From NCBI RefSeq assembly GCF_000516985.1, contig NW_006917106.1, positions 53,301-117,300 on the forward strand: 64,000 bases of DNA, in the 5' to 3' direction. The notes under the pieces were generated by a model that saw only the letters and a list, made by a program, of their open reading frames with translations, searched no databases and had not been told where the DNA came from. The translations under genes and the position numbers were made by a program. Shown here in pieces: positions 32,588 to 53,212 of the stretch (its first letter is position 1; each line of letters opens with the position of its first letter). This stretch comes from Pestalotiopsis fici W106-1 (lineage: Eukaryota; Ascomycota; Sordariomycetes; Amphisphaeriales; Sporocadaceae).

Positions 32588-33986
32588 ATTGAATATGATC
32601 AAAGTAAAAAAATCAGGAGTCTCTCAATTCACAGCTTGGATTGTGGTGTATTCAAGGTCTGTGATCAGGCGATGAGTGTAGAGGTTTAGATAGGTGAAAA
32701 TCTAGACATGGAGCTGCGAATGTCAGTCTACACTCTGCGTCCTTTGCTTGAAGTTATGTCTACTTCATATTATGAACAAACAGCCTAATACGCATGCCAC
32801 GTGCTGCTCACCCTCCACACATTTCTTTATCGCTTCGCCCTCGCCGCACACTACTAACCAGCTCCGGATCATGATACTTGGCGCGGCATATTTTCGGTCG
32901 ATCCGATGCATTTAAACCGTACCTGCATTAGGTTTTCCGGGGGGTTTTCCAACTATCAAGCTAAGCTGGAGGCGACTATGGAGAAAAGCCAAGGATGGCA
33001 ACTCAAACCCGCGTCATATCTTCAAGTTCTTGTCAAGTGAGCGGAAGCCACAGAGGCACGATTATCGGATGTTCTTTTCCCCCCCAAAGGCCTGGAATCA
33101 TCCTAAAACTGTTCCAGATAGATGCAGGACCTGATAGCATGCGTTAATAACAGGCTTTATCGTACAAGCATCCATTGTTACCCACCAGGGCGCGGGACAT
33201 GTGGGCTCCCGAAGCTTGGCACATATCCTCAAATGTGACCATGTTACCGAATGTCAAGGCCATCATCGAATGAAAACGAGTCAGTGTGTAGGATCCGTCA
33301 CCCTGGCGATGTCTAGCGAAGCTTTGTTTTTGCGGCATCGAGATCCCGAATGGTGTCAACGTGCATGGCCGCAACCCTGGCAGACAACGGCATTCATGAT
33401 GGCTAGATGATAGTGACTTATCCCGAGAGCGGCTTTGTTTCCGCTCAACCATGCCGGATTCAACGTTGCTTCGGAAACATGTCACTCAATGGGACTCGCC
33501 GGTGTGCGTACGATGCATACTCTTGCCTCCAGACCCTGGCCGCGCCACCCATCCGATGCGATGAAGATAGGCATGCCCAGGGCTAGGTCGGCCGAGACAA
33601 CACAACCAGGGAATTCGGGACCCAAAGAAGGCAAATTTCCTGAAGTGGTCCCGGTAAGTGACAAAGGCACGGGATTGACAGTTGCGTATGAGTATATTAT
33701 TAACAAGAATTTCGATCCCGTCGACAAAGAACTCTAGAGAACTTGGAGCAATAACGTCACATCCATTCTAAACTCTACCAACCATCATATAACACATTGC
33801 TCGGCACTGCACCTCATCACAACCGGTACAGGCTAAAGTATTAGTCGTAGACTGGGCACGCCAACACCTTTCATTCGGAGACTGTCTTTGATAAATACAA
33901 CCAGAGATAGAGAGAGAGAGTGTGTGTGTGTGTGAAAGAGAGAGTGAAAGGAAACCACGCACAGCTCAGAACACGAAACAGCCATC
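32588..33986. promoter_or_regulatory. Divergent promoter region, FAD monooxygenase / isocyanide synthase
   Basis: A 1.4 kb spacer between two divergent genes. It ends with a compound microsatellite, (AG)6(TG)7, at 33909-33934, close to the synthase start. No CGG-N7-CCG palindrome was found here; one CGG-N8-CCG occurs near 33430. Confidence 0.5.
33909..33934. repeat. (AG)6(TG)7 compound microsatellite in 5' leader
   Basis: Perfect dinucleotide runs about 50 bases before the ATG of the isocyanide synthase fusion. Confidence 0.9.
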
Positions 33987-36162
33987 ATGTCTATCAGTAC
34001 ACTGACTACCACGGCGGCCGAATGTCTGGCCAGCCAGGATCCGAAAACGACACCACTGCATCTCGATTCCTCTCACGTCAAGACGGCTGCGCAAATTCTG
34101 GAAATAATAGATAGATATTCCCTGCCCAAGAGACGCAGCGATCCAGAGGAATCAGAGTCTGACCAAGACGCAAGTTTCCTCGACCAGATCTACTCAAAGG
34201 TTGTCGAAGGCCAAGCCATCCAGATGTGCTTGCCGGCCTTTCCCTTCAAATCTCCCAACACCAGCACAAAGGTCCTCGGTCGGTTGCCCGACAAGGCTGA
34301 AGAGTTTGCGTTGGCACATTTGAACGGGCTGTGCTCCGCCATCGAAGACGTGTACAGCCCTGGCGCCACGCTCATGATTATCTCCGACGGTCTCGTGTAT
34401 AATGGTAAGCTCCATACGACCCATCTTCCATCCTGTTCTTGCACTGACATGCGAAAAAAGACCTTTTGGGTGTGCGAGACAGTGACGTCTGGGCTTATGG
34501 CGAGGCGTTGAGGGCCATGAGCATTCGAAAGGGCTTCAAACACATTAACTTCTCACGGTTGCAGGATCTCGTCCACATCGGTGTGCCCAATGAGCTTGAT
34601 CAAATCACCTATGTGTCCAATGCCACCAACTTCAGACATGCACTTTTGTCAAAGTTTAGCAACCCCGACTTTGACGCATCCCTGAAGATCAAGGACGACG
34701 AGGACACCTGCCTGACGTATCGAGGATACATCAAGTTCTTGTCAACAGATCTTCAAGATGTTTACCCCGTCGGAAACTCGCGCACCAAGTCGCAATTCAA
34801 GAAGGGCATCGAGTATGTCGCCAAGCAAATGCTGTTCAGGGGTGACGTAAGTTAAGCTGAACACGTCCACATCCTCTTCCTCTTCCCACCTCCTTTTGTT
34901 TGACTCTTTCCACCACCAAACTGACACTCGGTACAACAGGCCTTTGCACGTGCCGTGAAGGCTACCTTTTCCGATCGGCTCAGGCTCTCCATTCACCCGT
35001 CTACTGGCAGGAACAAACTCTCAGTCAGCCCATTGCCAACAGACACCCCATTTACCACACCATGGCATTGCACTGTAGCATTCCGGTTGGACGGAACTGT
35101 GACGAGTGGCCACCACGCCGTATTTGATGCCGACGACAAGTTTGAACTCGTTTACCAGGATGGCAGGCCCAGTTTCTACAGAGAAAAGACCGACCTCTTG
35201 GCCTGGGCAGGCGAAGCAGGCGGCATCGAATGCGACCCGTTGTACCCGGCTGGTCTTCTCATTCGGCCAGCAAAGGGTGCTGGTGCCTTGTCCATTGAAG
35301 ACATTGATGGTGCCAAAGTCAGATCGCTTGCGCAACGCAACTCTCCAGTGATCCTGCGCGATTTTGCCAAGACAAGGGACCGCGAGCTTTTCATCAAGAA
35401 ATCGCACGACCTCGGTTCGCCAACTGGCTGGAAGTTTGGTCTCGTTCTGGAGGTGAAGGATAGAGGAGCCGAGACGCGCGGGCTGAACAATGTTCTCTCT
35501 GCTGAATGGATGCCATTTCACTATGATGGCCTCTTCAAGACGGAGAAGAGAACAAAAGAGGATGGTACCGAAGAAATCGTATCTACGCCACCTGGGTACG
35601 TCATTGTGGACTTTTCTTCTTCTTTTTCTTTTTTTTTTATACTTTTACCATGTTTCCACCCTGTACTGACTTAAATCACAGCTTCCAGTTTTTCACATCA
35701 GTCACGACTTCACCCAAGGACACTGGATTTACGCTCTTTTCTTCTTCAACTATGATGTTCAAGTATCTCCCTCAAGATTTGCAGGTCCAGGACTTGCGCA
35801 GGCTTACATGGTCCGTCTCGACATCATCCTTCAACGCCACTGTACTGCGTGGCTTGCCCGTGGTGGTTGACCACCCTGCCACTGGTAGCCCATGCCTGCG
35901 TTTCCACGAGCCATGGCCACAGTCCAAGACCAAGTTTGAAGCCACCAATGTCGAGATTGAGAATGCTAGCGAGGCTGGCAACAAGGACAGCACGACGATC
36001 TGTAATGTCTTGACGGATCTCTTGCACGACCGTCGAGTTGCTTACTATCACGCCTGGGAGAAGGGTGACTTGCTGGTGAGCGACAATGTCCTGGTGATGC
36101 ATACACGAAGCGACTTCACAGCAGGATGCGACAGGGAACTTTGGAGGATCAACTTTGACTAG
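33987..36162 (+). CDS. Isocyanide synthase fused to TauD-type Fe(II)/2-oxoglutarate dioxygenase
   Basis: Four exons (33987-34404, 34461-34846, 34940-35595, 35682-36162) give 646 residues. Residues about 20-300 are a DIT1/PvcA-type isocyanide synthase domain, with MCLPAFPFKSPNTSTKVLG and the motif MIISDGLVYNDLLGV followed by VWAYGEAL. Residues about 330-646 are a TauD/TfdA dioxygenase: iron ligands H462 and D464 (MPFHYDGLF) and H627 (LVMHTR), with R638/R642 (DRELWRINF) for 2-oxoglutarate. Isocyanide synthases turn an amino acid amine (often Tyr or Trp) into an isocyanide using ribulose-5-phosphate; the oxygenase then usually oxidises or decarboxylates the product. This domain order matches fungal XanB-type fusions of xanthocillin-like pathways. 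All key residues are present, so it should be active. Neighbours are an FAD monooxygenase, an epimerase-like reductase and a transporter. Confidence 0.9.
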
Positions 36163-40436: not shown

Positions 40437-43101
40437 TCATCCTGATATCAAAAAGTTCTCAGTACTGTCAAAGACGTCCAAGCATTGATTCCAGTCAAAT
40501 GCCATGTCTGACATCTCTGCATCGTTCATCATTTGAAACGGCAATGTTTCGACAAGCTCGCCAATTGTTGGTTCGAGAAATCGCGACGGGTTAGGATCGG
40601 CAGATGCTATGTCCGCATGCGCGGACGGGTTTGCGTTTCTGGATTCTATTGCCGTACCTAGCAGCCCGGATCAATACACAATCGAAGGGAGGGGGGAAAA
40701 AAAAAAAAGGAAAATGTGTTGCCGTACCAGTCACATTTGGCATGATTCGATCGTGGAGCCGCCTGAGCAGCTCCAGAGATCTCCGAACAGAGATACTGTT
40801 GCCTGACAAATGATCGAGGACTATTTCACAATACTTCCAATGCTCTTGAATGACAGAACAGTCAAAACAATCTCTCAACTCCGGATATAATTGGTTCAAG
40901 ACGAGGACGAGCCCAGAAGTACATGCATCTTGGACTGGCTTAGCTTGGCATCCACCGATGCTACCATGTAGACAAGGTTCGAGCACTTACAAAGGGAATC
41001 CCACCACCACTCAGTCGCAACATTGCGATGAGTCTGATGAACCACTCGGATAAGGTCAATGGACGACTGAACACAATTCTTGGCACATTGTAATGCAAAG
41101 GATTTATAGAGCGATGTGAGGACTGGGCCCTGCTTGTTACTGGGTTCCATGGTTAGCACAAGACACAGTCTTTTGCTTGACGGTGCTTCTCAAACCTGGA
41201 AGAGAACTGCGTAAACACGGGGCGCCACAACAATATTCGCAAATATAGAAACCTGGAAAGAGGTGAGTCAAGTTCTGTAGGCATGATGGGTCGAGGGATT
41301 CACCTTCTGTGCAGGACCAGTCGTTGCGTTTCAGTAGTCGCTTTCAAGGTAGGCGAGACTTGGTTCAGGTCCAAGGGCCGTTGCCATGACAAGATTGGAG
41401 GCAAGGACTCCTCGTACACAAGCAGTCTGCGTTCTAACTGGAGGATGGCAGTGAGATCGTCGGCATACTTACCTGGTGGCGCTGGATCAGCCATTGGGCC
41501 GTAATTACCGCCTTGATAGACCTGCCCCAAAATGTCTCTAAGAAGATGGCACAAGCGATAATACTCGACGAAAAATATCATTTTGAATTCCTCATGATCT
41601 TGAACAGACATGGACATTTCCGTGCTGGTTTCTGGGTAGCTCACGGAGGCTGGGTATTCTGGTAGGTGAGTCGTCATTGCAGGACGTCCAAGTGTCATGC
41701 TTACAGTCCTGTCCATACACGTTAGCACTCACGAGGAGTATACTCGTGTCTAGTATTAGTAGACATGGAGAAAAAGAAGTGGTATATAAGTATCCTTTGC
41801 AACATACATGTCGAGGATGACACAGCCCTGCCAAGTTCGTCGGCTGATTTCAATTTCAAGCTGGCTTTCGCCCCTTCGAGGCTTATACGTGTGCAGGCCC
41901 AACCCCTGGGCGACTCGGCATGCTATGCCGATTGCGTGCCAACAGCGACTTGGGAACGGCGTGCTCTGCAGGAAGATGGTCACTAGCAACATGACCTGGG
42001 CCAATCCAATATTGTTAATGTCCAACATATCCAGACCGATGAAGGATTTAGCCCTCAGGAAGAAGGTTCTCGCGGCAGCCTCTTTCTCGGCTGGCGGAAT
42101 ATCCGAGAATGAAACACCAATGGCAAATATGATATTCAAGGCACACTGGAACAGCATTGTATGAGCATTGCCATTTGGAGGGCTGCCGAGGCCAACGTTG
42201 GGAAAGCTTCCCGATGGGTTGCTTTCGTCTCTCTGCGGCTCCCAAAGATGTCGATAGGCGTCTTCAAAGGTTGGTTTATGAAAAACGGGATAAAGATAGT
42301 AGACCTTCTCCCAGAAGCGGCTGAGTAGGTGATCCGCGAGTGACCGCGGGGGAAGACTGTAGTTCTCAGAATACGCACGATCCATGAAGCCGAGGCTGCG
42401 CCCTCTTGTTTGCGTCTGGCTCTGGCGAGTCGAAGTATCCCCGGTTGAAGCATTTGCACCAATTGGTGAGAATTCCGGGCTGTTGGCAGACTCCACAGCT
42501 TGTCTCATGAATGAGGCGGCCGAAGAGCTACCGTAGAAATGCTCCGAATCTTCTACCACGCCTGAAATGTCTCCGTCGTGGTCGAGGGTGCCCATGGCAG
42601 TAACTCCATTTTCTACGCCAGTGGACCCTGATTCTAGAGAGTCTGGTGAAACGATTTCGGTGGCACGATGTTGAACTGGGCGGTAGCATTCCGTGACCGT
42701 CCCTACGATAGGGGTCGGTGGATCACGGAAGCTACCCGCCTCAGCTGCTCTGGAGGGCGCCGGATCTTCTACTGCTGCATTCGCCGCCGGCGAGCCACCG
42801 ATTCCGTTTCGCTCTATAGTCTGCTCCAGAGCACGAATACGGTCATGCAGGGATTGAATGTAACTATACGGGCCATTAGTTCTGTACGTCATGGTCTGAA
42901 CGGCAAGAGTGTCTCTTATTCTCACGAGTCCCTATTGGCGGTTCGCGCATTCTCGATCGTGTAGACACACTGCGAGATGTCAAGACCTCGTCGTTGACAG
43001 GCCTGACAGACAGGCATAGAACCATCGCATTTTGTTCTGCGATTTCGACAGGATTGACAAGCTAACGGCGTCTTGCGACGAGGCTGACGCTTCTCGGACA
43101 T
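40437..43101 (-). CDS. Zn2Cys6 transcription factor with fungal MHR domain (cluster regulator)
   Basis: Seven exons (43101-42926, 42863-41808, 41708-41304, 41252-41196, 41139-40991, 40934-40728, 40657-40437) give 756 residues. The N-terminus has a binuclear zinc cluster, C-x2-C-x6-C-x6-C-x2-C-x8-C (ACQSCRNRRTKC...VCQACQRRG). A short coiled-coil-like helix follows (SLHDRIRALEQTI), probably for dimerisation. An acidic/Ser-rich linker leads to the MHR (LADHLLSRFWEKVYYLYPVFHKPTF, GIACRVAQGLGLH, RRTWQGCVILDMTVSMTLGRP). Homodimeric Zn2Cys6 factors bind CGG triplets in inverted order. Eight CGG-N7-CCG palindromes lie in the spacers of this gene and its neighbours, two of them in its own promoter, which suggests it runs the cluster and itself. 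The last intron is flanked by a 10-bp direct repeat. Confidence 0.88.
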
Positions 43102-43367
43102 GGCTTTGTCACGAGATTCGATTGTCTGTCGCTATGAGCTCCAGGAAGGGGCCCGTGCTTTTGCTGCTGAAGCTTCAATGTTCAGTCTACGTTGGTACCT
43201 ACCCACCAACCTAGGCAATATAGTGTTTAGCAGTCCAGTGTTTCTACATAGCACTTGATTGACGATATGGCAACGAGATGGTCGAGTTTCCATCAAAGTC
43301 GCTCTAGCCCGTGAACACACTGCTTCTCACATCGTGTGGGCCTATCCTTGTGGGATTGACGGACCCA

Positions 43368-43380
43368 CGGAATGCTTCCG
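43368..43380. promoter_or_regulatory. CGG-N7-CCG palindrome, candidate Zn2Cys6 site
   Basis: Spacer AATGCTT. Lies 266 bases 5' of the regulator ATG and 428 bases 5' of the amidohydrolase ATG. Confidence 0.65.
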
Positions 43381-43429
43381 GGCTTCCCTTAGGCAGCCCG
43401 GCCTATTCCTAGGGGTCAATACAGTAGAC

Positions 43430-43442
43430 CGGAAACATCCCG
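43430..43442. promoter_or_regulatory. CGG-N7-CCG palindrome, candidate Zn2Cys6 site
   Basis: Spacer AAACATC. Second copy in the same divergent promoter. Confidence 0.65.
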
Positions 43443-43808
43443 AACGACCTAGACTTTACATGACTGAACTCTCTTTCATGGCACGGCCGCCGTTTGCCCG
43501 CTACGTAGTGTCTTATTGAAGCTAGCAGCAATCAGTGCTTCAAGCCCCGCTGTGTGAATTGCAATAGCGAATCTTTTGTTAGGTATCTGATCAACATTCT
43601 GGTGCAAACAAGTTTTATACGTCATCCACTTGCTGCTGATAAACTCCATATACGTACACACAAGTATGGCTATACTTAACACGGTGTTGAGCTTTATTGT
43701 GAATCTCCCTCCCCAAAGACATCCCTTGCATACACTCGCACGAAAACTCTTCTTGGCACACCCATTTCCTTGGCATTCGACTAACTATATCTCTTCTCAT
43801 CGCAGATC

Positions 43809-45081
43809 ATGATTCTCGAGCACGTTGCCGGGGGCGCTGCCCGCTTGCTTTCAAGGAACGCCAGTGCTTCTCGCATTGATACTCAGTAATAAAACGTGCC
43901 CTGGACCCCGAAGTGCCAGTGATGAGACTAATTCTTCATAATCATAGTATTCATGTTTTGACGCCGAGTTACCTCAAGGCTCTCGACGAGAGCGGTGGTG
44001 ACCCCTCGGGATGGGCAACCCCCAGCTGGACACTGGAGGAATGCGTGCGCTTCAGTGATACAATCGGTGCATCATTCTCTGTCCTCTCCGTTACAGCTCC
44101 AGGGCCTGCAATCTTGGGGCCTACCAAGGAAGGAAGGCATCTTGCAAGAACGCTGAACGACGAGGTTTCGGCCATTTGCGAACAGCGACCGGGAAGATTT
44201 GGATTCTTTGCCAGTCTTCCCGACTTCAACGACATTGAGGGGGCTCTCTTGGAGATCAAGCACGTATTTGAAACCGGACAGAAGGCCAATGGAGTGGTCA
44301 TCATGTCATCATACGGCGACAGATTGGCTGGCGACGATGCATTCAGGCCTATTTGGGATGAGCTGAACAGGCATTCGGCGCTCGTCTTCCTCCATCCCAG
44401 CCATTTGCAGATCAAACCGGAGAAGATTGGCAATTTTCTTCCTCAGCCAGCGATCGACTACCCTCTCGCAACCACACGGGCGGCTATGTCTCTACTCGTC
44501 TCAGGCATCATGACGGAATGTGCTAAAATCGATGTCATTCTGAGCCACGCCGGTGGTGCGTTTCCGATGCTCGCACAGCGTGGCATAGGTTGTCTCGTCA
44601 ATCCTACCATTGCGGCGCAATCCAAGGTCAACATGCTCCAGGCGTACGTGGGCCCCCGAAATATATACACATAATTGATGCTTTGTACTAATGAAGAAAA
44701 ATCAGCAATTCAGCAGCAAACCGCTTTTGGTACGATCTGGCATTGTCGACTGGGGAAGCACAACTCAAGGCTCTTCTGGCCACCGCCCCATCGTCAAACA
44801 TTGTCTACGGGAGCGACTTTCCGTACGCGCCCAAGCTCGGGATCTATGCCGGCTTATTACAGTATAGCAATTTCGTCAGAAGCACGGAGGGCGGAAAAAT
44901 TGGACCGCAGCAACTGAATGCCAATGCGACCCGCCTACTGCAAAAACATGCCTCTGAGCACACTTTCCTGCCTCAAGGACATGAAATTGGAGCACAGACT
45001 TATAAGCCAGAGTTCGGGCTAGAAGAGAACGATGATGCGAAAAAGGCTAGGGAGCAACTAGGGCACTACCTGGACCACTGA
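43809..45081 (+). CDS. Amidohydrolase-2 family decarboxylase/hydrolase (ACMSD-like)
   Basis: Three exons (43809-43885, 43948-44643, 44706-45081) give 382 residues. Metal-site residues of the ACMSD / 6-methylsalicylate decarboxylase group are all present: H26 and H28 (RIDTHIHVLTP, rebuilt across intron 1), H175 (LVFLHPSH), H226 (VILSHAGGAFP) and D295 (YGSDFPYAP). Members remove CO2 from aromatic or alpha,beta-unsaturated acids, or hydrolyse related rings, with one Zn or Mn. The protein is slightly longer than usual (about 330-350) because of a C-terminal tail. It is divergent from the regulator and followed by the P450 on the same strand, inside the predicted regulon. The exact substrate is unknown; a carboxylated phenol-like compound fits the family. 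Confidence 0.88.
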
Positions 45082-45123
45082 GGGGGGTCCGAAGTATGTA
45101 CATTGTAGAAGTGTGTCCATTCT

Positions 45124-45136
45124 CGGGTGTGTCCCG
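45124..45136. promoter_or_regulatory. CGG-N7-CCG palindrome, candidate Zn2Cys6 site
   Basis: Spacer GTGTGTC. Just after the amidohydrolase stop and 472 bases 5' of the P450 ATG. Confidence 0.6.
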
Positions 45137-45360
45137 AACACCTCTAGAGAGCCAGGCCTACGTAGGTACATAGTATGTAACCTAGTGAGTCCAGGGGCCA
45201 CACAGTTCAAATCGAGGCATTCAGTACCCAATTCGTTAGATCATCATCGCGCCTCTTTGGAAAAATGACCAGTCACTACATATGTAGTCTGGTGGCTCTC
45301 CTGCTTACGTACCTGTGTATTGCGCTGGAGGCTTTCCCCAAAATTGACTCGTGAGTGCAC

Positions 45361-45373
45361 CGGGATGATTCCG
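45361..45373. promoter_or_regulatory. CGG-N7-CCG palindrome, candidate Zn2Cys6 site
   Basis: Spacer GATGATT. 235 bases 5' of the P450 ATG. Confidence 0.65.
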
Positions 45374-45608
45374 GCTTCTCCATACGCTATAGCGGCTGGT
45401 CGCCAAGGATGCTATCTAGATCCCCGGCGGCCTAAGTACTGGTAATATGAATTCAAGCTCGTAAACTTCCCGTGACCCATTGATACTTTTGACATGGACC
45501 TGTTAAATTGTCGCCCTTTGAATATCGCGTTGCTGTTGCATTCTTATTCTTTGGCCTCTCCAATGTCTTCATTGTCCTGAACTCCCCTATTTTGTATCGA
45601 TTGACAAG

Positions 45609-47387
45609 ATGTTGGCGTTCCTGATAGATCACGCTGTTACCTTACACGAACAATGTCCCGTCCTTTCTTTCCTTGCGGGAGTAATCTTTCTACTTACCAT
45701 CATATTTTCTCTAATCCAACACATATTCAGACCTATTGGAACCCGGAGAGGGCGAAATGGCCAACAGCCACGTCTTCCGCCAGGCCCGAAGGGCATGCCA
45801 ATCCTGGGAAACTTGGGAGCCATGAGGGCCGGTCGCAATGACCCCAATCACAAATTGGTAAGCATAACCATCATACGAGACTTCTTGACAAGTGACATTG
45901 CGATGCTAATTCAATGTCACCAGCTGAGAGACATGCCAACACAGTACGGAGAGATGACAACTCTCCATCTAGGCCAAAAGACTTGGGTTTTTCTCAACAG
46001 CAATCGCGTGGTATCTGAAATTATTGCAAAGAAGAGCAGTATCACAAACACGAGATCTCCGATGCCCATATCCAGCGGTATTGTGAGCCATGATCGAAGG
46101 TCCCTCATCTTGCCCCAGGAGACTTGGACCGAGCGACGTCGTGTCATGCACAGTCTCTTGAGCGGGACAGCACTCAAACAATACGGTGCCTGGCAGGAAG
46201 AGGAGAGCGCACAGATGATGGCAGAATACGTTGTCAAGCCAGAGATGTGGTATAAGCACCACTATCGTTACGCCAACTCCGTCATCCACCGCATCGCCCT
46301 TGGCGACCGGCTAGTCAAGTCGACCAAGGAGCTCAGTGACCTACAAAACTGTGTCACATTTTTCGTTGGCAGCATCGGATCAAGCTTGGTTGACTGGTTT
46401 CCAGATGTCGTCAAATTGCCCAAATTCCTCCACTTTTGGGCACCTCAATGGGAGAAACTGGGCCAATGGAACTACAACGTCTATAATTCATGGTACGAGC
46501 CTGCCCGCAAGCAGGTCGAGGCTGGTACCGCGCCTCCATCCTTCCTGCGTGATACGCTGCTGCATCCCGACACCAAATACAAGGGCGACGACGAGGACTC
46601 CATGTATGTCGCAATGCAGCTGATAGAAGCTGGCAGCGATACCACCCGCGAGGCCCTCAAAATCATGGTTATGGCGTCGCTCGAGTACCCGGAGCCCTTT
46701 CGCAAGGCCCGGGCTGAGATCGATCAAGTTTGTGGCGTTGGTGCTGACGCCAGGCTGCCACGGTTAGAGGACATGGAGTCCTTGCGATACATCTGCGCCA
46801 TGGCCAAGGAGATTCTGCGGTGGCGACCCATTTTCATTCTTACTCCGGACCACACGTTGAGCAATGACCTTGAATTTGAGGGTTATTTCTTCCCTGCTGG
46901 CGTTGGATTCGTCATCAACGAGGTTGCTGTCTGCAATGAGTGCGAGGATCCCGACGTATTCAAACCCGAGCGATGGATGGACGGCCATGAGACTGATATC
47001 GCCCATGGTCTGTGGCAATTCGGTGGTGGTCGGCGAATCTGCGTCGGCTACCGCTTGGCACAGAGAAGCTTGTTTATCAACATTGCGCGCCTAGTGCAAT
47101 GCATTGATTTTGAGGCAGTAAGTCTTTTATCATGAACAGAAATACTGCCCCTATGAAGTCTGCTAACTTCTGAGCAGAGTGGGAAATATGATTCGCGCCT
47201 GCTCAACCATGATGCCATTCATGAGCCCTTTCCCGTCAAGCCTCAAATTCGAAGTGAGGAGTACAAAAAACTGATCATCGAGGAGGCTACCAAGCTGGGG
47301 GTTCTTGAAGATGCCAAAGCAGTCAGAGACAATGATGACTCGAAACAAAACGAAGATTTCACAGATCTTATTAAAGGAGTATTTTAG
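45609..47387 (+). CDS. Cytochrome P450 monooxygenase
   Basis: Three exons (45609-45857, 45924-47117, 47178-47387) give 550 residues. An N-terminal membrane anchor (residues about 18-36) is followed by the proline-rich hinge LPPGPKGMPILG. Core motifs are AGSDTTR in the I helix, KEILRWRP (ExxR), FKPERW, and the haem loop FGGGRRICVGYRLA with the axial Cys at residue 456. It is a complete class II microsomal enzyme that needs a P450 reductase encoded elsewhere. The pattern resembles fungal P450s of the O-methylsterigmatocystin oxidoreductase-like group that hydroxylate aromatic or polycyclic substrates. Intron 1 (66 nt) has no stop in frame, so an unspliced form would carry 22 extra residues. Its neighbours suggest it adds the first oxygen in the cluster pathway. 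Confidence 0.9.
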
Positions 47388-47786
47388 AGGTCGCGATTGA
47401 ATGGGACGAGATTTGTTTTGATGTTACAAGTCAATAGATTGTATATTATTCCAGTGTATACATGCCACACGAATTTGCAACCTCTGTGTTTACCGAAAAC
47501 AATAAGAATGACTTATTATCAATACTTTGTCATGGGACTAAACCTCTCGATTTTGGTTGGAAAGGAAAGGGGAAAGTGCAAGCTTGCAATATAAGCCAAT
47601 TTTAGATCAAAATACATCTTGTGATCTTTTACTAAATTCTTTGAAGATAGTATAAGTGATTTAACTAAAAGAGAATTCTTTGATCTGATGCAATAAAACT
47701 TTCTTTAGAATATCATTCCCAAACGATTGTTTCCTCTGGCCCGTATAACATTGCCATGCCTTGTATGACTTTCATGCACCAAAAGC
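47388..47786. other. Intergenic, convergent 3' flanks
   Basis: AT-rich spacer between the stops of the P450 and BVMO genes. Nothing else seen. Confidence 0.5.
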
Positions 47787-49594
47787 CTAAGAAATAAATG
47801 TTTGAAGATGTTTCGCAGCAACTTCATAGTCAAAGTTCTGGCCCCAAGACCACCAAGCCACTGCACCTATGACCACCCAAGCTACAAGATAACCATGTCC
47901 TAACCCTTCCTTTCGCAACTCCGCCTCACCCTGCATGAATGTTAGAAACAATAAAATTCCATCTCGGTCGCTCTATTGTCTTGTCACTTACAGTATACCG
48001 CCAATCAGACCACGTCGGGAACCGACTTCGGAACCAAAAGTAGCTTTGGGTCCAAGGATAGCTCATTGCGTTCCACGGTTTACCGCCATTGGCTCTGATA
48101 TACCAGCTCTGACACCCCGAGTTCCAGACAGTCTTCTCGAGGTCTTTTTGAAGTCTCTCTGTGTATTCAGCCTCGGCCTGCGGTTTGAGATCAGCCACGG
48201 TGGCTTGGCCTTCCAAGACGGGCTTGATCACGCGCAGAGCGAAGTTGATTGAGTTTTCGGCCGCCATGAGGGCAGAGGTATGACCTGTGGCGGCATTGGG
48301 ACCCAGAAGGATGAAGAAGTTGGGGAATCCACTCAGCACAGAAGAGTTGTAGGACGTGGGACCACCCATCTCGCGCCAATGCTCGCCTACCGTCTTTCCT
48401 CCACGTCCCTTGATGTCCATTTGGTCCAAAAAGTGGTTCGTGACAAACCCGTTAGCCAATACAATAACGTCAGCTTCAACCAGACCGTCCTTAGTCCGTA
48501 TGCCCTTAGAAACAATCTCCAGGGCAGGACTGTTGGTCAGAGTCAGGTTCTCTTCGTGGAGGCTGTCCAAATAGCCAGAGTCGAAGATACGTCGCTTGCA
48601 GCCATACTCAAAGTCGGGAATCAGAATACCGTGATACTTTGGAGGTGCTTTCCCACGCATGTATGCTTCGCTGAGAGCGCGCCTCTTCTGTCGGTATCGG
48701 GCAGCGGCCTTGGTCATTGGGAGACCTTGAAGTTCCTTTTCTGCGATGAGAAAAACCACAAAGCGAAACAATTGCATCGCACCCGGGACCCAACGCAGGA
48801 TGAAGCGAGTCCAATCCGGAATGGAAGCGTCAATAGGTGGCATGATCCAATGCTTGCTGCGGACAATCTGCGTCGTGTGTGCCGTCTTTTTGACAATGTT
48901 GGGTACAATCTGGGCGGCGGTGCAGCCATTGCCGATGACCACGACCTTCTTTCCCGTGAGGTCGACATCCGTCCGCCAACGTCCTGAGTGGAACAAAGGA
49001 CCGTCAAATCTGTCCTTTCCGGGAATGTCGATTTCACGGGGTGTGACCAGCTGTCCCGAGGCCGAGAACAAGAATTGGGATTCGTGGTAGAAGGTCTCCT
49101 TGGTGTTGTAGTCGAATACCCGCATCCTCCAGACGCTACGCTCTTCGATCCACTCACACGCTTCGACGTTGACACAAAATCTCATTTTCTGTACAAGCTC
49201 GTACTTGGTCGCGACATGTACCAGATAGGCCTTGAGCTCGGTGTTGCTGGGTAATATGCGTGTCCAGTTCGGGTTCGGTTCAAATGAGAAGCTGTACAAT
49301 ACACTAGGAACATCGCAAGCACAGCCTAAGAAAAACTGATTAGATCGTACGCTTAGCTTTTCCTTGCGAGATTTGTTTTTTCTTCCCCTTTCAACATTTG
49401 AGTAGTGCTCTCAACTTGCCTGGGTATTGATTGATATGCCATGTGCCTCCCAGTTCGCTATGACGCTCAAAGAAGTGAATGTCTGTGATTCCATACCAGC
49501 GCTTTAGTGTCGCACCCAAGCCAATGGCCGAGAATCCCGTGCCGACACATGCAAACTTGCTGCATGTTGTAATTTTTGATGACTCTGGAACCAT
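47787..49594 (-). CDS. Baeyer-Villiger monooxygenase with C-terminal membrane helix
   Basis: Three exons (49594-49420, 49325-47992, 47930-47787) give 550 residues. The first dinucleotide motif is VGTGFSAIG, followed by LGGTWHINQYPGCACD, which is rebuilt across intron 1. The type I BVMO fingerprint F-x-G-x3-H-x3-W is exact in FDGPLFHSGRW. The second Rossmann motif is VVVIGNGCTAAQIVP. Such enzymes use NADPH, FAD and O2 to insert oxygen next to a ketone, making an ester or lactone. The third exon encodes a hydrophobic helix (GYLVAWVVIGAVAWWSWG) near the C-terminus that could anchor it to the ER. Intron 1 begins with GC rather than GT (CAG|GCAAGT), a recognised minor class. The promoter carries two adjacent CGG-N7-CCG sites. 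Confidence 0.89.
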
Positions 49595-49792
49595 GTTGAC
49601 GGTCTCGTATTGACCTTGGTGCAGGAAGCTTGAGTACAGAAAACAGCAGGGTCCCCGATTGACGTCTATGTATTTATCCCAATGTCATAACTTTCGCTCA
49701 CGATACTCGCAGATCCCATTATCAACCGAGGCACTTGGCATGCGAGACCCATGGCTCTCAGGTACCTAGGTAGGTATTTGGCTCGTCGCGGT

Positions 49793-49805
49793 CGGATCGC
49801 AACCG
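49793..49805. promoter_or_regulatory. CGG-N7-CCG palindrome, candidate Zn2Cys6 site
   Basis: Spacer ATCGCAA. About 200 bases 5' of the BVMO ATG. Confidence 0.65.
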
Positions 49806-49810
49806 AGAGA

Positions 49811-49823
49811 CGGGTCGTTCCCG
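49811..49823. promoter_or_regulatory. CGG-N7-CCG palindrome, candidate Zn2Cys6 site
   Basis: Spacer GTCGTTC. Only five bases beyond the previous site, about 1.7 helical turns centre to centre. Confidence 0.65.
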
Positions 49824-50298
49824 CAAACGTCGATCGTTTACTTAGCCGTCCAAGATAACTCCCACTGCTTCCACAAAGACGCCCATGTACACAGAAGTGG
49901 CGTTATTTCAATTTCCGCGGACACATGTGATCAACAGTTGTATCTCGACTTTGAAGACGACCGACAGCGAAGCATTCGCCAATGGACTGTTCTCCGCTCC
50001 TTCAAGTACCTGAATAACACTAGAGCCCATGTTTTTCCCGGATGGATTTGGTCACACAATTATTTATCTGAGCTGAAAAAAAGGAAAAAGAAAAGAAAAG
50101 TCACTTAATCAAGCTTATCTCAGATCTTTTGGTGTCTGCTACGACATTGGTCACAATGAAGGAAATGGAGGAGTGATCAATGGCAACGGTTGCAGCGTCC
50201 TATAGCCGTTAGAAATCAATAAAGACATGCTAAATAGGCATGCTAGGAAACGCCAACGGTAGGACTATTGGCTATATGTAAATTTGTGACCGAGAATA

Positions 50299-51532
50299 TC
50301 AGTTTGCAACTAGTCCACCAGTTCCCGGATCAATCTTTTGTCGGCCCTTGAAATCAACGCGTAGATCATGGGACGACTCTCTCAGGACTCTGAATAGCCA
50401 TTCAGGTAGGGATCCCTCCAAGAACAATCAGTCAGTCTGACGATACAGATTTGATGACACAGGTATAATTATACGCACCAGCAAATGGAGGTATCGCATC
50501 ATGCCAGGCATGTATAGAGTCTTTCCGCGGCCACTTAATAGTATATCTACAAGGGTCTCACCAACAGAGTCCACATGCAATACCGGGTACATGAAGTTGG
50601 AGAGCCCTGTTTCCCCTTTGAACAACGGGGTGCGAATGAAGCTGAAGATGCCTAAGCTAAGGCGTACTCTAGGCGCGTGATGAATGTTTTTGAGTTCTAG
50701 TTGCAAAGCCTTTGTTGGGTAAAGAAAGACATTAATTCCACCTCAACTCGGAGGATTCAAACCAACGTACCTGGTGAAGTGCATTGATTCCGGACTTGGT
50801 CGCGGCATAGTCGGCGATTCCAGCCGGTGGCATGATGGAGCTCATGGAACTAATGTTCATGATATGGCCATGGTTATGCTGCACAAGGTAAGGTAGGAAC
50901 TCCTTGGTCAAGAGAAATGGTGCGAGAAGATTTGTTCGTATGGTGACGTCGACATCTGCATAAGAGCCATCCATGACAGTAAAGCCGCGAGATAGGCCGG
51001 CATTGTTGACCAAGACTGTTGGATGACCGACTTCCTGGCGAATCTTTTCACTGATAGCCTTGATCACAGAGGAATGGCTGAGGTCGCACTGGTAAAAATG
51101 TATTTTAGACACTGGCGGAGGCGTCCAGCTCATGGGTGAATAGTCAAGAATGACAATGGTCGCCCGAGGGTTGCGCTGGATTAGATGTTGGACGATACTC
51201 GCTCCAATACCGCTGCTTGCACCAGTTATCAAGACAATTTCCTTGCTCCAGTCCCATAAAGGATCAGCTGCCCAATTGTTTGCGTAACCATCGTTCAAAT
51301 AATCATTGGCCCAGAGTAAAATACTGAGGAGTACCCAGAGACTAACCGACGAAGCCAATGGCCAAGTAAACTTGGGAGTCTGCTGGAGAAAATCATCATT
51401 ATATGATACCTGTATAAAATGTATCATAGTTTGGGCGACAGCTGCAGTCACGGCGAGTGCAGGGTTGAACACAATTCGCCTCACGAATGCAGCGGCGACA
51501 TCGATCGTGAATCCTTCGCGTGATAGTTTCAT
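50299..51532 (-). CDS. Membrane-associated SDR (retinol-dehydrogenase / 17-beta-HSD-like)
   Basis: Three exons (51532-50771, 50709-50479, 50415-50299), all phase 0, give 369 residues. An N-terminal part of about 95 residues with two hydrophobic stretches precedes the SDR domain, as in RDH10/DHRS-like microsomal enzymes. Motifs are VLITGASSGIG, an acidic residue after strand 2 (ILDYS), LVNNAG, ISSMSS and YAATK. The acidic residue suggests NAD(H), hence alcohol to ketone oxidation. That would feed a ketone to the neighbouring BVMO. The ATG at 51532 was preferred, but an in-frame ATG at 51613 would add 27 residues. It is divergent from the esterase-like gene, with two CGG-N7-CCG palindromes in the shared promoter. 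Confidence 0.86.
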
Positions 51533-51666
51533 GTTGGCGTGGTCAGAAGTATCAGCAAATCGATTTGCGTGAACAACATCGCAAGTGAGTGGCCAGGCCA
51601 AGCCAGATATCATCCAGGTCACCTATAGATCAGCTACTGAATGATAACTAATGGGATGTCTTCTCG

Positions 51667-51679
51667 CGGAATGAACCCG
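51667..51679. promoter_or_regulatory. CGG-N7-CCG palindrome, candidate Zn2Cys6 site
   Basis: Spacer AATGAAC. 134 bases 5' of the SDR ATG. Confidence 0.65.
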
Positions 51680-51718
51680 ACTCAAATTTTGGACGCAACT
51701 AGTGTCATAGTGCCAGGT

Positions 51719-51731
51719 CGGGTAAGTCCCG
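51719..51731. promoter_or_regulatory. CGG-N7-CCG palindrome, candidate Zn2Cys6 site
   Basis: Spacer GTAAGTC. Second copy in the same divergent promoter. Confidence 0.65.
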
Positions 51732-52000
51732 TGGAGCAGTTATACACAGTAGTTGCATGCGGGTCCAAGTTGGAGAGCTCCAAGTCATCCATCGGCAAAT
51801 CCCATAATTGGGGGTTCATCTCAAAGCTTCCGCGGCATGTTCGGCATCTGGATTAAGCTTCATCACTTAACTCGAAGCTTTTAAATGGAATGTTTTCATC
51901 AAGATAAACACTATCCCATATTGCCGAAAGAAAAATGCATTTGAGCAGACGCCATGAAGCCCTCTTTGAATATATTTGAAAAGGCTGGTCTAATCTTTAG

Positions 52001-53212
52001 ATGGCCCCTCGTATGTGAGTGAAGGCAAAATAAACAAAGATAGCAGGAACAACCAGCAACGGAAAATGTGGCTTGGAGCGTTTGGTCCGTCTTCACGATG
52101 ACTGACGACTTCTAGTTCTTCCCTGTGCATTGTTGAATTGCATTCGATGCGCCTTTCTTGCCTGGCGCCGAAAGTTGCCCGTAAAGCTGTACATCATAAC
52201 AGGCCTTCTTCGCACCTGGCTCAGTGCTTTCTCGCCGAGGCAGATCCAAGCCATGAGCCCCCTGCCTCTTGACACCTACAGCGCCTGGATTGACAAGAAG
52301 AGGGCGGCAGCCATCAAGGAAGGCGATCGACTGGCTCTAGATCGGCTCAGTCATATGGCAGAACATCTGCCAGATGGCAACTCATGGCTCCTTTGGGTCG
52401 GCAACCGCAAAAAGGCTTCCAGATACGTCTTGTTCTTTCCAGGAGGCGGATATATCGCCCCAGTCACACCGGGACACTTTGAATGGTGCTTTCGTGCATA
52501 TGTAGAAAGAGAAAGCGGCCACGAAGTCGCTGTGGCTGTTCTGCAGTATACACTGTGCCCAGCTGCACGATACCCAACACAACTCATGCAAGCTACATCG
52601 GCACTTAGGCACTTGATGGACTCGGGTATTCCTGCCAGCAGTATTGTCATTGGCGGAGACTCTGCTGGAGGTAATTTAACGGCGCAGCTGCTGATACATC
52701 TTGCACACTCGGCAGCCCCCAATCGCCTTCCGGAGCCTTTGGCTGGTGCATTCCTGGTGTCGCCCTGGTTGTCGGGCAATACCAACGGGCGTTCCTTCTC
52801 AGAGAACCAATTCATTGATATGCTTTCTAGAGAACATATTGAGACTTCATCACGGGAACTTTTGCATACACAGCCAACACAAGACGACTTGAAAGGTGGC
52901 CATGGCGAGTGGGCTTTGCCACTGGACACGGATCGAAAATGGCTGAATGGCTTGGCCCAAACTACCCGAGCACTTTATGTTACAGTGGGCGCGAACGAGG
53001 TGTTGAGAGATCAGGGCATCCTGTTCGCCGAGACGATTCGCAAGAGAAATGAGACAATCAATGTCCAGTTAGAGATTTTGGAGGCTGATGCCCATGATTC
53101 TGTGCTTCTCGAGGGGTTCGGCGCTTTGCTCGCTATAGGAAAGAAGGAGTATGACCTACCACCACAGCTCGCCCGCCACCGAGCGGAGATCGCGTCATAC
53201 TTTAGCTCTTGA
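52001..53212 (+). CDS. Alpha/beta-hydrolase, esterase/lipase of the Abhydrolase_3 type
   Basis: The main exon (52116-53212) encodes an alpha/beta-hydrolase: oxyanion-hole motif LFFPGGGY (HGGG-like with Pro for His), nucleophile GGDSAGGN, and a late Asp/His pair in the region VTVGANEVLRDQ and ADAHDSVLL. A hydrophobic N-terminal segment (PVKLYIITGLLRTWL) could bind the membrane, as in steryl acetyl hydrolase-like proteins. A short first exon 52001-52010 with a GTATGT donor brings the frame to an ATG and a total of 368 residues; this exon is uncertain, and the first in-frame ATG in the main exon is at 52253. The role in the cluster is probably to cut the ester or lactone made by the BVMO. It is the last gene on this side of the cluster. 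Confidence 0.82.

What the first reader, a model, noticed from the sequence alone, without database searches (positions are those of the whole stretch)
43102..52000. Paired CGG-N7-CCG palindromes in every promoter of a six-gene cluster
Reading the spacers by eye gives CGG-N7-CCG at 43368, 43430, 45124, 45361, 49793, 49811, 51667 and 51719: two in each of the four upstream regions (regulator/amidohydrolase, P450, BVMO, SDR/hydrolase). The four spacers total about 2.4 kb. A six-base fixed pattern is expected about once per 4.1 kb at even base composition, so about 0.6 is expected and 8 are seen. Homodimeric Zn2Cys6 factors bind inverted CGG triplets with fixed spacing, and such a factor is encoded in the cluster. 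This predicts a self-regulated regulon with defined edges (regulator to alpha/beta hydrolase). One isolated copy was noticed elsewhere (21331); the isocyanide-locus promoter has none.
Basis: partly seen in the sequence, partly recalled or inferred. Interest (0 to 1): 0.88.

Follow-up and report, generated by a model that had tools for sequence, protein, structure and literature searches.

The report
Paired regulator sites across gene cluster
In a plant-associated fungus, each of the four promoter regions of a six-gene cluster carries two copies of the same short mirror-image DNA signal, very probably the docking site of the cluster's own switch protein, and a related switch elsewhere in the genome shows the same signal beside a different set of genes.

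Summary
All eight CGG-N7-CCG sites are at the stated positions, two in each of four promoter regions. Genome density predicts 0.47 (P about 4e-8); the motif ranks first of 31,085 gapped triplet pairs in these spacers. All eight carry A/T at positions 5 and 9, against 23.6% of sites genome-wide. Correction: the window holds 21 sites; three lie in the regulator's own exon 2.

The interpretation gained an out-of-sample test. The regulator's closest full-length relative in this genome sits beside other enzymes (nitrilase, amidase, another hydrolase). Its neighbourhood also holds eight CGG-N7-CCG sites, all intergenic by my reading and all with A/T at 5 and 9 (0.80 expected in the 20 kb first read, P 2e-6). 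So the motif tracks the regulator, not the enzymes. A second relative lacks it.

The organism is Pestalotiopsis fici. Regulator, BVMO and hydrolase homologues share contigs in many ascomycetes. Binding, dimerisation and co-expression are inferred. This is an ordinary kind of system, a pathway-specific Zn2Cys6 regulon, with a spacing that four exact-string paper searches (nine spellings) did not find.

The parts
43368..43380 (.). CGG-N7-CCG site 1 (CGGAATGCTTCCG), shared regulator/amidohydrolase upstream region; 267 bp from the regulator ATG
   Evidence: gene starts
43430..43442 (.). CGG-N7-CCG site 2 (CGGAAACATCCCG), same region; 329 bp from the regulator ATG
45124..45136 (.). CGG-N7-CCG site 3 (CGGGTGTGTCCCG), upstream of P450
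45361..45373 (.). CGG-N7-CCG site 4 (CGGGATGATTCCG), upstream of P450
49793..49805 (.). CGG-N7-CCG site 5 (CGGATCGCAACCG), 199 bp upstream of the BVMO ATG; the one site that misses the purine at position 4 of a half-site
49811..49823 (.). CGG-N7-CCG site 6 (CGGGTCGTTCCCG), 217 bp upstream of the BVMO ATG
51667..51679 (.). CGG-N7-CCG site 7 (CGGAATGAACCCG), shared SDR/hydrolase upstream region; 135 bp from the SDR ATG of my model
51719..51731 (.). CGG-N7-CCG site 8 (CGGGTAAGTCCCG), same region; 187 bp from the SDR ATG of my model
42681..42738 (.). extra pair of CGG-N7-CCG sites with A/T at positions 5 and 9, inside regulator exon 2 (42681 and 42726); role unknown
40437..43101 (-). Zn2Cys6 regulator, 7 exons, 756 aa (PFICI_15199): zinc cluster residues 14-50, Fungal_trans 239-476
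43922..45081 (+). amidohydrolase-2 / ACMSD-like decarboxylase-type enzyme, 365 aa
45609..47387 (+). cytochrome P450, 550 aa
47787..49594 (-). Baeyer-Villiger-type flavin monooxygenase, 550 aa, with a GC-AG intron in the model (PFICI_15202)
50299..51532 (-). short-chain dehydrogenase/reductase, 369 aa; start codon chosen by recalled resemblance, an in-frame ATG lies further upstream
52253..53212 (+). alpha/beta hydrolase (Abhydrolase_3 / esterase type), at least 319 aa; an upstream exon is likely, so the start is uncertain

Best explanation
The eight palindromes are the binding sites of the cluster's own Zn2Cys6 regulator. A homodimer is expected to place one zinc cluster on each inverted CGG; the linker and coiled coil would fix the gap at seven bases, with A/T required at the second base inside each triplet (CGG-N-W-NNN-W-N-CCG). 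Two sites per promoter region allow two dimers to bind, giving a shared on/off switch for the regulator itself and five enzymes. Shown: the sites, their excess, the extra base constraint, the regulator gene, and the same motif at the paralogous regulator's cluster. Inferred: binding, homodimerisation, activation rather than repression, autoregulation. The enzymes form an oxidative breakdown or tailoring module. A plausible order is P450 hydroxylation, SDR oxidation to a ketone, BVMO oxygen insertion to an ester or lactone, hydrolase cleavage, with a decarboxylase-type amidohydrolase; the substrate is unknown.
For: 8 sites against 0.47 expected, P 4e-8. Rank 1 of 31,085 dyads (P 1.1e-8; 3e-4 after correction for all dyads) and one of three dyads present at least twice in every spacer (one of the other two, CGG-N6-CCC, fits the same sites shifted by a base). 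Gap specific to 7 among inverted pairs. A/T at positions 5 and 9 in 8 of 8 sites against 2,080 of 8,811 genome-wide. Out-of-sample: around the closest full-length paralog (C5:3126886-3128387), 8 sites, 8 of 8 with A/T at 5 and 9 (0.42 expected in the 10.5 kb that they span, P 1.7e-8; 0.80 in the 20 kb first fetched, P 2.1e-6), in the spacers beside hydrolase, nitrilase, amidase and regulator; rank 1 of 40,228 dyads there, P 2.5e-6. Six control stretches round other Zn2Cys6 hits: 1-3 sites each, no A/T-type pair. Regulator homologues share contigs with BVMO (15) and hydrolase (15) homologues. The linker sets the triplet spacing in Gal4 and Ppr1 (stated in PMC4245848, passages). Of 120 listed regulator homologues, 114 match the cysteine pattern; all 114 have a C-x9-C last loop and 106 a 14-residue linker.
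Against: No binding or expression data. The second paralog (C9:839608-841106) has one CGG-N7-CCG and none of the A/T type in the 11 kb around it; in 40 kb it has ten sites, three of the A/T type, with no A/T pair within 250 bp, though its cysteine loop and linker are shorter (read by eye). The purine at position 4 seen in 15 of 16 window half-sites is not kept at the C5 locus (8 of 16; 2 of 8 sites fit the full consensus). The C5 dyad result alone would not survive correction for all 40,228 dyads (0.10). A second dyad in the window spacers, CTA-N1-GTA, scores almost as high (P 2.2e-8, 11 copies in three of four spacers), so another signal or sequence bias may be present. Two A/T-type sites lie inside the regulator's coding exon. 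Genome-wide listing of double sites with the A/T constraint did not complete. Site conservation in other species was not tested.
Confidence: 0.85

Rival explanations
1. The sites are real but are bound by another factor encoded elsewhere (for example the C5 paralog or a broad xenobiotic regulator), and the resident regulator works through something else.
For: Zn2Cys6 factors can act in trans; the C5 paralog's sites have the same spacing, so cross-binding is possible. The regulator search gave 51 exon-level matches in the genome, so many related factors exist.
Against: The motif occurs at both related regulators and their neighbours, and not as pairs at six control stretches or around the C9 paralog. 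The two loci prefer different bases at position 4 (15 of 16 A/G in the window, 12 of 16 C/G at C5) and position 6 (12 of 16 A at C5), as expected for two separate cognate factors.
Confidence: 0.1
2. Chance: a GC-rich six-base pattern picked out by eye after the fact.
For: One other dyad scores nearly as high in the same spacers.
Against: Survives correction for 100 patterns (4e-6) and for all 31,085 dyads (3e-4); extra base constraint not used to define the sites; replicated at a locus chosen by homology alone.
Confidence: 0.02
3. The sites act through a heterodimer, or as repressor elements, rather than through a homodimeric activator.
For: Nothing in the sequence shows the sign of regulation or the dimer partner. 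Some zinc cluster factors repress or pair with others (recalled).
Against: Half-sites share the A/T constraint on both sides (16 of 16 half-sites in the window, 16 of 16 at C5), as a homodimer would require.
Confidence: 0.08

Closest known systems
TerR and the terrein cluster of Aspergillus terreus (PMC4360782; passages read)
   Same: Cluster-encoded Zn2Cys6 factor with one fixed CGG-pair motif in the promoters of the pathway genes; found by motif search of the intergenic regions, then confirmed there by binding and reporter assays.
   Different: TerR sites are direct CGG repeats with a 5-bp gap, and inverted half-sites were not recognised; here inverted CGG with a 7-bp gap, two per promoter region, and no binding data.
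RhaR of A. nidulans / Gal4 / Ppr1 (PMC4245848; passages read)
   Same: Zinc cluster + linker + coiled coil; inverted CGG triplets with a spacing set by the linker.
   Different: CGG-X11-CCG for RhaR and Gal4; Ppr1 N6 (recalled); here N7.
Hap1 (PDB 1hwt and relatives), best solved-structure match of the DNA-binding region
   Same: Zinc cluster and dimerisation region align over residues 8-77.
   Different: Hap1 binds direct CGG repeats asymmetrically (recalled); the sites here are inverted repeats.
AcuK/AcuM CCG-N7-CCG elements of Aspergillus (recalled, no call)
   Same: Seven-base gap between triplets.
   Different: Direct repeats bound by two factors; here inverted repeats.

Membership tests
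fungal Zn2Cys6 (Gal4-type) pathway-specific regulators | C-x2-C-x6-C-x5-12-C-x2-C-x6-10-C zinc cluster near the N terminus | tested here: met
   Zn_clus 35.9 bits, residues 14-50; the cysteine pattern is found in 114 of the 120 listed homologues, the P. fici record included
fungal Zn2Cys6 (Gal4-type) pathway-specific regulators | Fungal_trans middle homology region | tested here: met
   Fungal_trans 105.3 bits, residues 239-476
fungal Zn2Cys6 (Gal4-type) pathway-specific regulators | linker and coiled coil after the zinc cluster, allowing a homodimer | tested here: inconclusive
   Alignment to Hap1 chains runs through the coiled-coil region, residues 8-77; 14-residue linker in 106 of 114 homologues with the cysteine pattern; dimerisation itself not testable
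fungal Zn2Cys6 (Gal4-type) pathway-specific regulators | paired CGG triplets of fixed spacing in target promoters | tested here: met
   8 inverted CGG with a gap of exactly 7 in four promoter regions; repeated at the C5 paralog, not at the C9 paralog
fungal Zn2Cys6 (Gal4-type) pathway-specific regulators | physical linkage to the regulated genes | tested here: met
   Gene models; regulator and BVMO homologues share a contig in 15 cases, regulator and hydrolase in 15, with the caveat that very long contigs do not prove adjacency
fungal Zn2Cys6 (Gal4-type) pathway-specific regulators | sequence-specific binding to the sites and control of the genes | not testable with these tools
   no binding or expression data held
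Type I Baeyer-Villiger monooxygenase (cluster enzyme) | FxGxxxHxxxW fingerprint (recalled) and homology to known BVMOs | tested here: met
   FDGPLFHSGRW in the translation; best solved relative steroid monooxygenase 4ap3, E 4.1e-54

The most novel reading that the evidence does not exclude
A whole subfamily of zinc-cluster regulators, found across filamentous ascomycetes, carries an inherited CGG-N7-CCG spacing and a paired-site promoter layout. The spacing stays fixed while the enzymes beside the regulator are swapped and the bases at positions 4 and 6 drift, so that sister regulators in one genome keep separate regulons. The spacing would then be readable from the protein (C-x9-C loop plus a 14-16 residue linker) and could be used to predict regulons directly from genomes.
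Probability: 0.3. Interest if true: 0.6.

Novelty: new member of a known kind. Interest (0 to 1): 0.45.

Why it matters
It assigns, from sequence alone, a likely binding code and a six-gene regulon to a regulator for which I found no characterisation, and whose linkage to a Baeyer-Villiger monooxygenase and a hydrolase recurs in many fungi. Two paralogous regulators with different enzymes and the same motif in one genome give a natural test of which feature of the protein sets the spacing and which sets the flanking bases. If confirmed, the code would let one draw cluster edges and switch such clusters on.

Tried and rejected
Refined consensus CGGRW: it fits 7 of 8 window sites against 548 of 8,811 genome-wide, but at the C5 locus only 2 of 8 sites fit, so I keep only the A/T part as shared.

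Second paralog C9:839608-841106 as another replicate: it failed; one CGG-N7-CCG in 11 kb and none of the A/T type.

Coding-sequence sites at 42,681-42,800: not counted as promoter sites; left unexplained.

Other spacings: six CGG-N9-CCG lie in 11 kb at each of the C5 and C9 loci, but only two in the C5 spacers, so I did not pursue them.

Conservation of the sites in other species: no fungal collection is offered, so only protein tables were used. Contig sharing is weak evidence on chromosome-sized contigs: in Fusarium solani-melongenae the regulator and hydrolase hits share a contig but their locus tags are about 850 apart; that pair is still inside the count of 15.

Literature on the spacing: exact strings (one each; six) returned 0 papers. 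Forms with brackets, such as CGG(N7)CCG, cannot be searched, so this does not show the spacing is unreported. A search for the P. fici locus tags found only the genome paper, which in the passages seen mentions PFICI_15221, a PKS, not these genes. A search for the enzyme combination gave no matching cluster paper among the 12 listed of 28 (titles and abstract starts only). Passages of PMC3334620, PMC5559640, PMC9335490 and PMC8939176 gave no N7 inverted site.
Full report
WHAT IS THERE. The window belongs to Pestalotiopsis fici W106-1: the regulator model matches PFICI_15199 at 100% over 72% and the BVMO matches PFICI_15202 at 99%; the genome copy has 51.74 Mb in 20 contigs. Spliced gene models place them upstream of genes: 267 and 329 bp before the regulator ATG (shared with the divergent amidohydrolase), two before the P450, 199 and 217 bp before the BVMO, and 135 and 187 bp before the SDR (shared with the hydrolase, whose first exon I could not fix).

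IS IT MORE THAN CHANCE. The four spacers total 2,771 bp. Genome density predicts 0.47 sites (8,811 in 51.74 Mb); 8 are seen, Poisson P 4.0e-8, or 4e-6 after allowing for 100 patterns. Dinucleotide shuffles of the spacers give a mean of 0.39 and a maximum of 3 in 2,000. Over gaps 0-24, no other inverted or everted CGG pair exceeds 2; direct CGG-N8-CGG reaches 6 on both strands together, of which four overlap the same palindromes. In a scan of triplet-gap-triplet dyads (31,085 seen, gaps 0-20), CGG-N7-CCG ranks first (P 1.1e-8; 3e-4 corrected). The runner-up, CTA-N1-GTA (P 2.2e-8), is absent from one spacer; the third, CGG-N6-CCC, fits the same sites one base over. By coordinates, three doublets with an inner gap of at most 60 bp fall in the spacers (0.01 expected from 188 in the genome); two more such doublets fall in the regulator's exon 2.

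A CONSTRAINT THAT WAS NOT USED TO FIND THEM. All 16 half-sites have A or T at position 5, and 15 of 16 have a purine at position 4. Genome-wide, 2,080 of 8,811 CGG-N7-CCG sites have A/T at both positions 5 and 9 and 548 fit the full CGGRW-N3-WYCCG form; 8 of 8 and 7 of 8 window sites do.

The window has 21 sites, above its own shuffle mean of 9.8. Ten lie at 16.9-30.1 kb, of which one is of the A/T type, and three lie in the regulator's second exon, of which two (42,681 and 42,726) are of the A/T type. No site lies between 30,158 and 42,681 (which includes the isocyanide synthase genes) or from 53,213 to the window end, so the right-hand edge fits the claim.

AN OUT-OF-SAMPLE TEST. Searching the genome with the regulator gives two relatives matching both zinc cluster and body, on contigs C5 and C9. 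The C5 regulator is 52% identical over 42 residues of the zinc cluster and 27% over the body. Its neighbours are an Abhydrolase_6 hydrolase, a nitrilase, an amidase and an FAD monooxygenase; of the window's five enzymes only the BVMO has a match in the 50 kb read, about 15 kb from the regulator. Yet C5:3118192-3128666 holds eight CGG-N7-CCG sites: two before the hydrolase, three before the nitrilase, one before the amidase, two before the regulator (gene starts by my reading of the frames). All eight have A/T at 5 and 9. Expected: 0.42 in the 10.5 kb they span, P 1.7e-8; 0.80 in the 20 kb first fetched there, P 2.1e-6. In those spacers the dyad again ranks first, of 40,228 (P 2.5e-6; 0.10 if corrected for all dyads, but it was named beforehand). 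The A/T requirement was part of the pattern fixed, before this locus was read; the purine at position 4 did not carry over (2 of 8 sites fit). Results against: the C9 relative shows one site in 11 kb and none of the A/T type, and ten sites, three of the A/T type but no A/T pair within 250 bp, in 40 kb. Controls: six 10-kb stretches round other Zn2Cys6 hits show 1-3 sites and no A/T-type pair; seven further flank stretches show 0-4 sites and no A/T-type pair. In the C9 protein the last cysteine loop (x6 rather than x9) and the linker are shorter (read by eye). Among 120 listed homologues of the window regulator, 114 match the cysteine pattern, all with a loop of 9, and 106 with a linker of 14.

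THE CLUSTER IS AN OLD UNIT. Among 120 regulator, 119 BVMO and 120 hydrolase hits with contig lengths (the best listed rows), 15 contigs hold regulator and BVMO, 15 regulator and hydrolase, 17 BVMO and hydrolase, and 7 all three, P. fici included. Near-consecutive locus tags support adjacency, for example Fusarium nematophilum 003609, 003610 and 003612, Humicola 8563 and 8564, Trichoderma asperellum 10007099 and 10007102. Long contigs alone do not, as the F. solani-melongenae pair with tags about 850 apart shows.

HOW IT MOST LIKELY WORKS. The regulator has Zn_clus and Fungal_trans domains and its DNA-binding region aligns to Hap1 through the coiled coil. In Gal4 and Ppr1 the linker between zinc cluster and coil sets the gap between CGG triplets (PMC4245848, passages). 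The simplest reading is a homodimer on each palindrome, two per promoter region, switching the regulator and five enzymes together. Binding, dimerisation and the sign of regulation are inferred. The enzymes (decarboxylase-type amidohydrolase, nearest solved relatives 2f6k and uracil-5-carboxylate decarboxylases; P450; BVMO; SDR; esterase-type hydrolase) suggest hydroxylation, ketone formation, oxygen insertion and ester or lactone cleavage; the substrate is unknown.

WHAT IS KNOWN. TerR of the terrein cluster is the closest worked example: a cluster-encoded Zn2Cys6 factor whose motif, direct CGG with a gap of 5, was found in all cluster promoter regions but three and confirmed by binding; inverted half-sites were not bound (PMC4360782, passages). 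The present case is the same kind of system with another geometry. Exact-string paper searches for the N7 form returned nothing, but bracketed spellings cannot be searched.

VERDICT. Observation confirmed with a corrected background count; interpretation well supported by sequence, untested at the bench. New member of a known kind; the most interesting part is that the motif follows the regulator lineage while the enzymes differ.

Noticed in passing
window 42681-42738: A further pair of A/T-type CGG-N7-CCG sites 45 bp apart inside the regulator's second exon; could be chance, coding constraint or an internal autoregulatory element.
   Followed up: partly
window 43245-43508, 45158-45438, 49666-49845: CTA-N1-GTA (either strand) occurs 11 times in three of the four spacers and is the second-ranked dyad; several copies overlap and lie near the palindromes; unexplained.
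   Followed up: no
L023 (C11:526001-536000): Around another Zn2Cys6 hit, seven CGG-N11-CCG (Gal4-like gap), including pairs at 529692/529736 and 534333/534387; may be that regulator's own code.
   Followed up: no
L019 (C13:217001-227000): Around another Zn2Cys6 hit, eight CGG-N8-CCG, three of them within 190 bp at 219346-219534.
   Followed up: no
window 49326-49419: The BVMO gene model uses a GC-AG intron to keep the frame.
   Followed up: partly
window 45266-45353: A small open frame with a signal-peptide-like start (MTSHYICSLVALLLTYLCIALEAFPKIDS, read by eye) ends at a GTGAGT donor-like site between the two P450-promoter sites (sequence).
   Followed up: no
window 33948-36162: DIT1/PvcA isocyanide synthase followed by a TauD-type dioxygenase domain; no CGG-N7-CCG there.
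   Followed up: no
L012 (C16:117301-127300): G+C drops to 0.30 just past the window's right end, against 0.43-0.57 in 2-kb steps inside it.
   Followed up: no
P0157 and P0215 (Fusarium verticillioides, Colletotrichum karsti): BVMO homologues annotated as one long protein with an SDR domain (728 and 944 aa), either real fusions or mis-joined neighbours.
   Followed up: no
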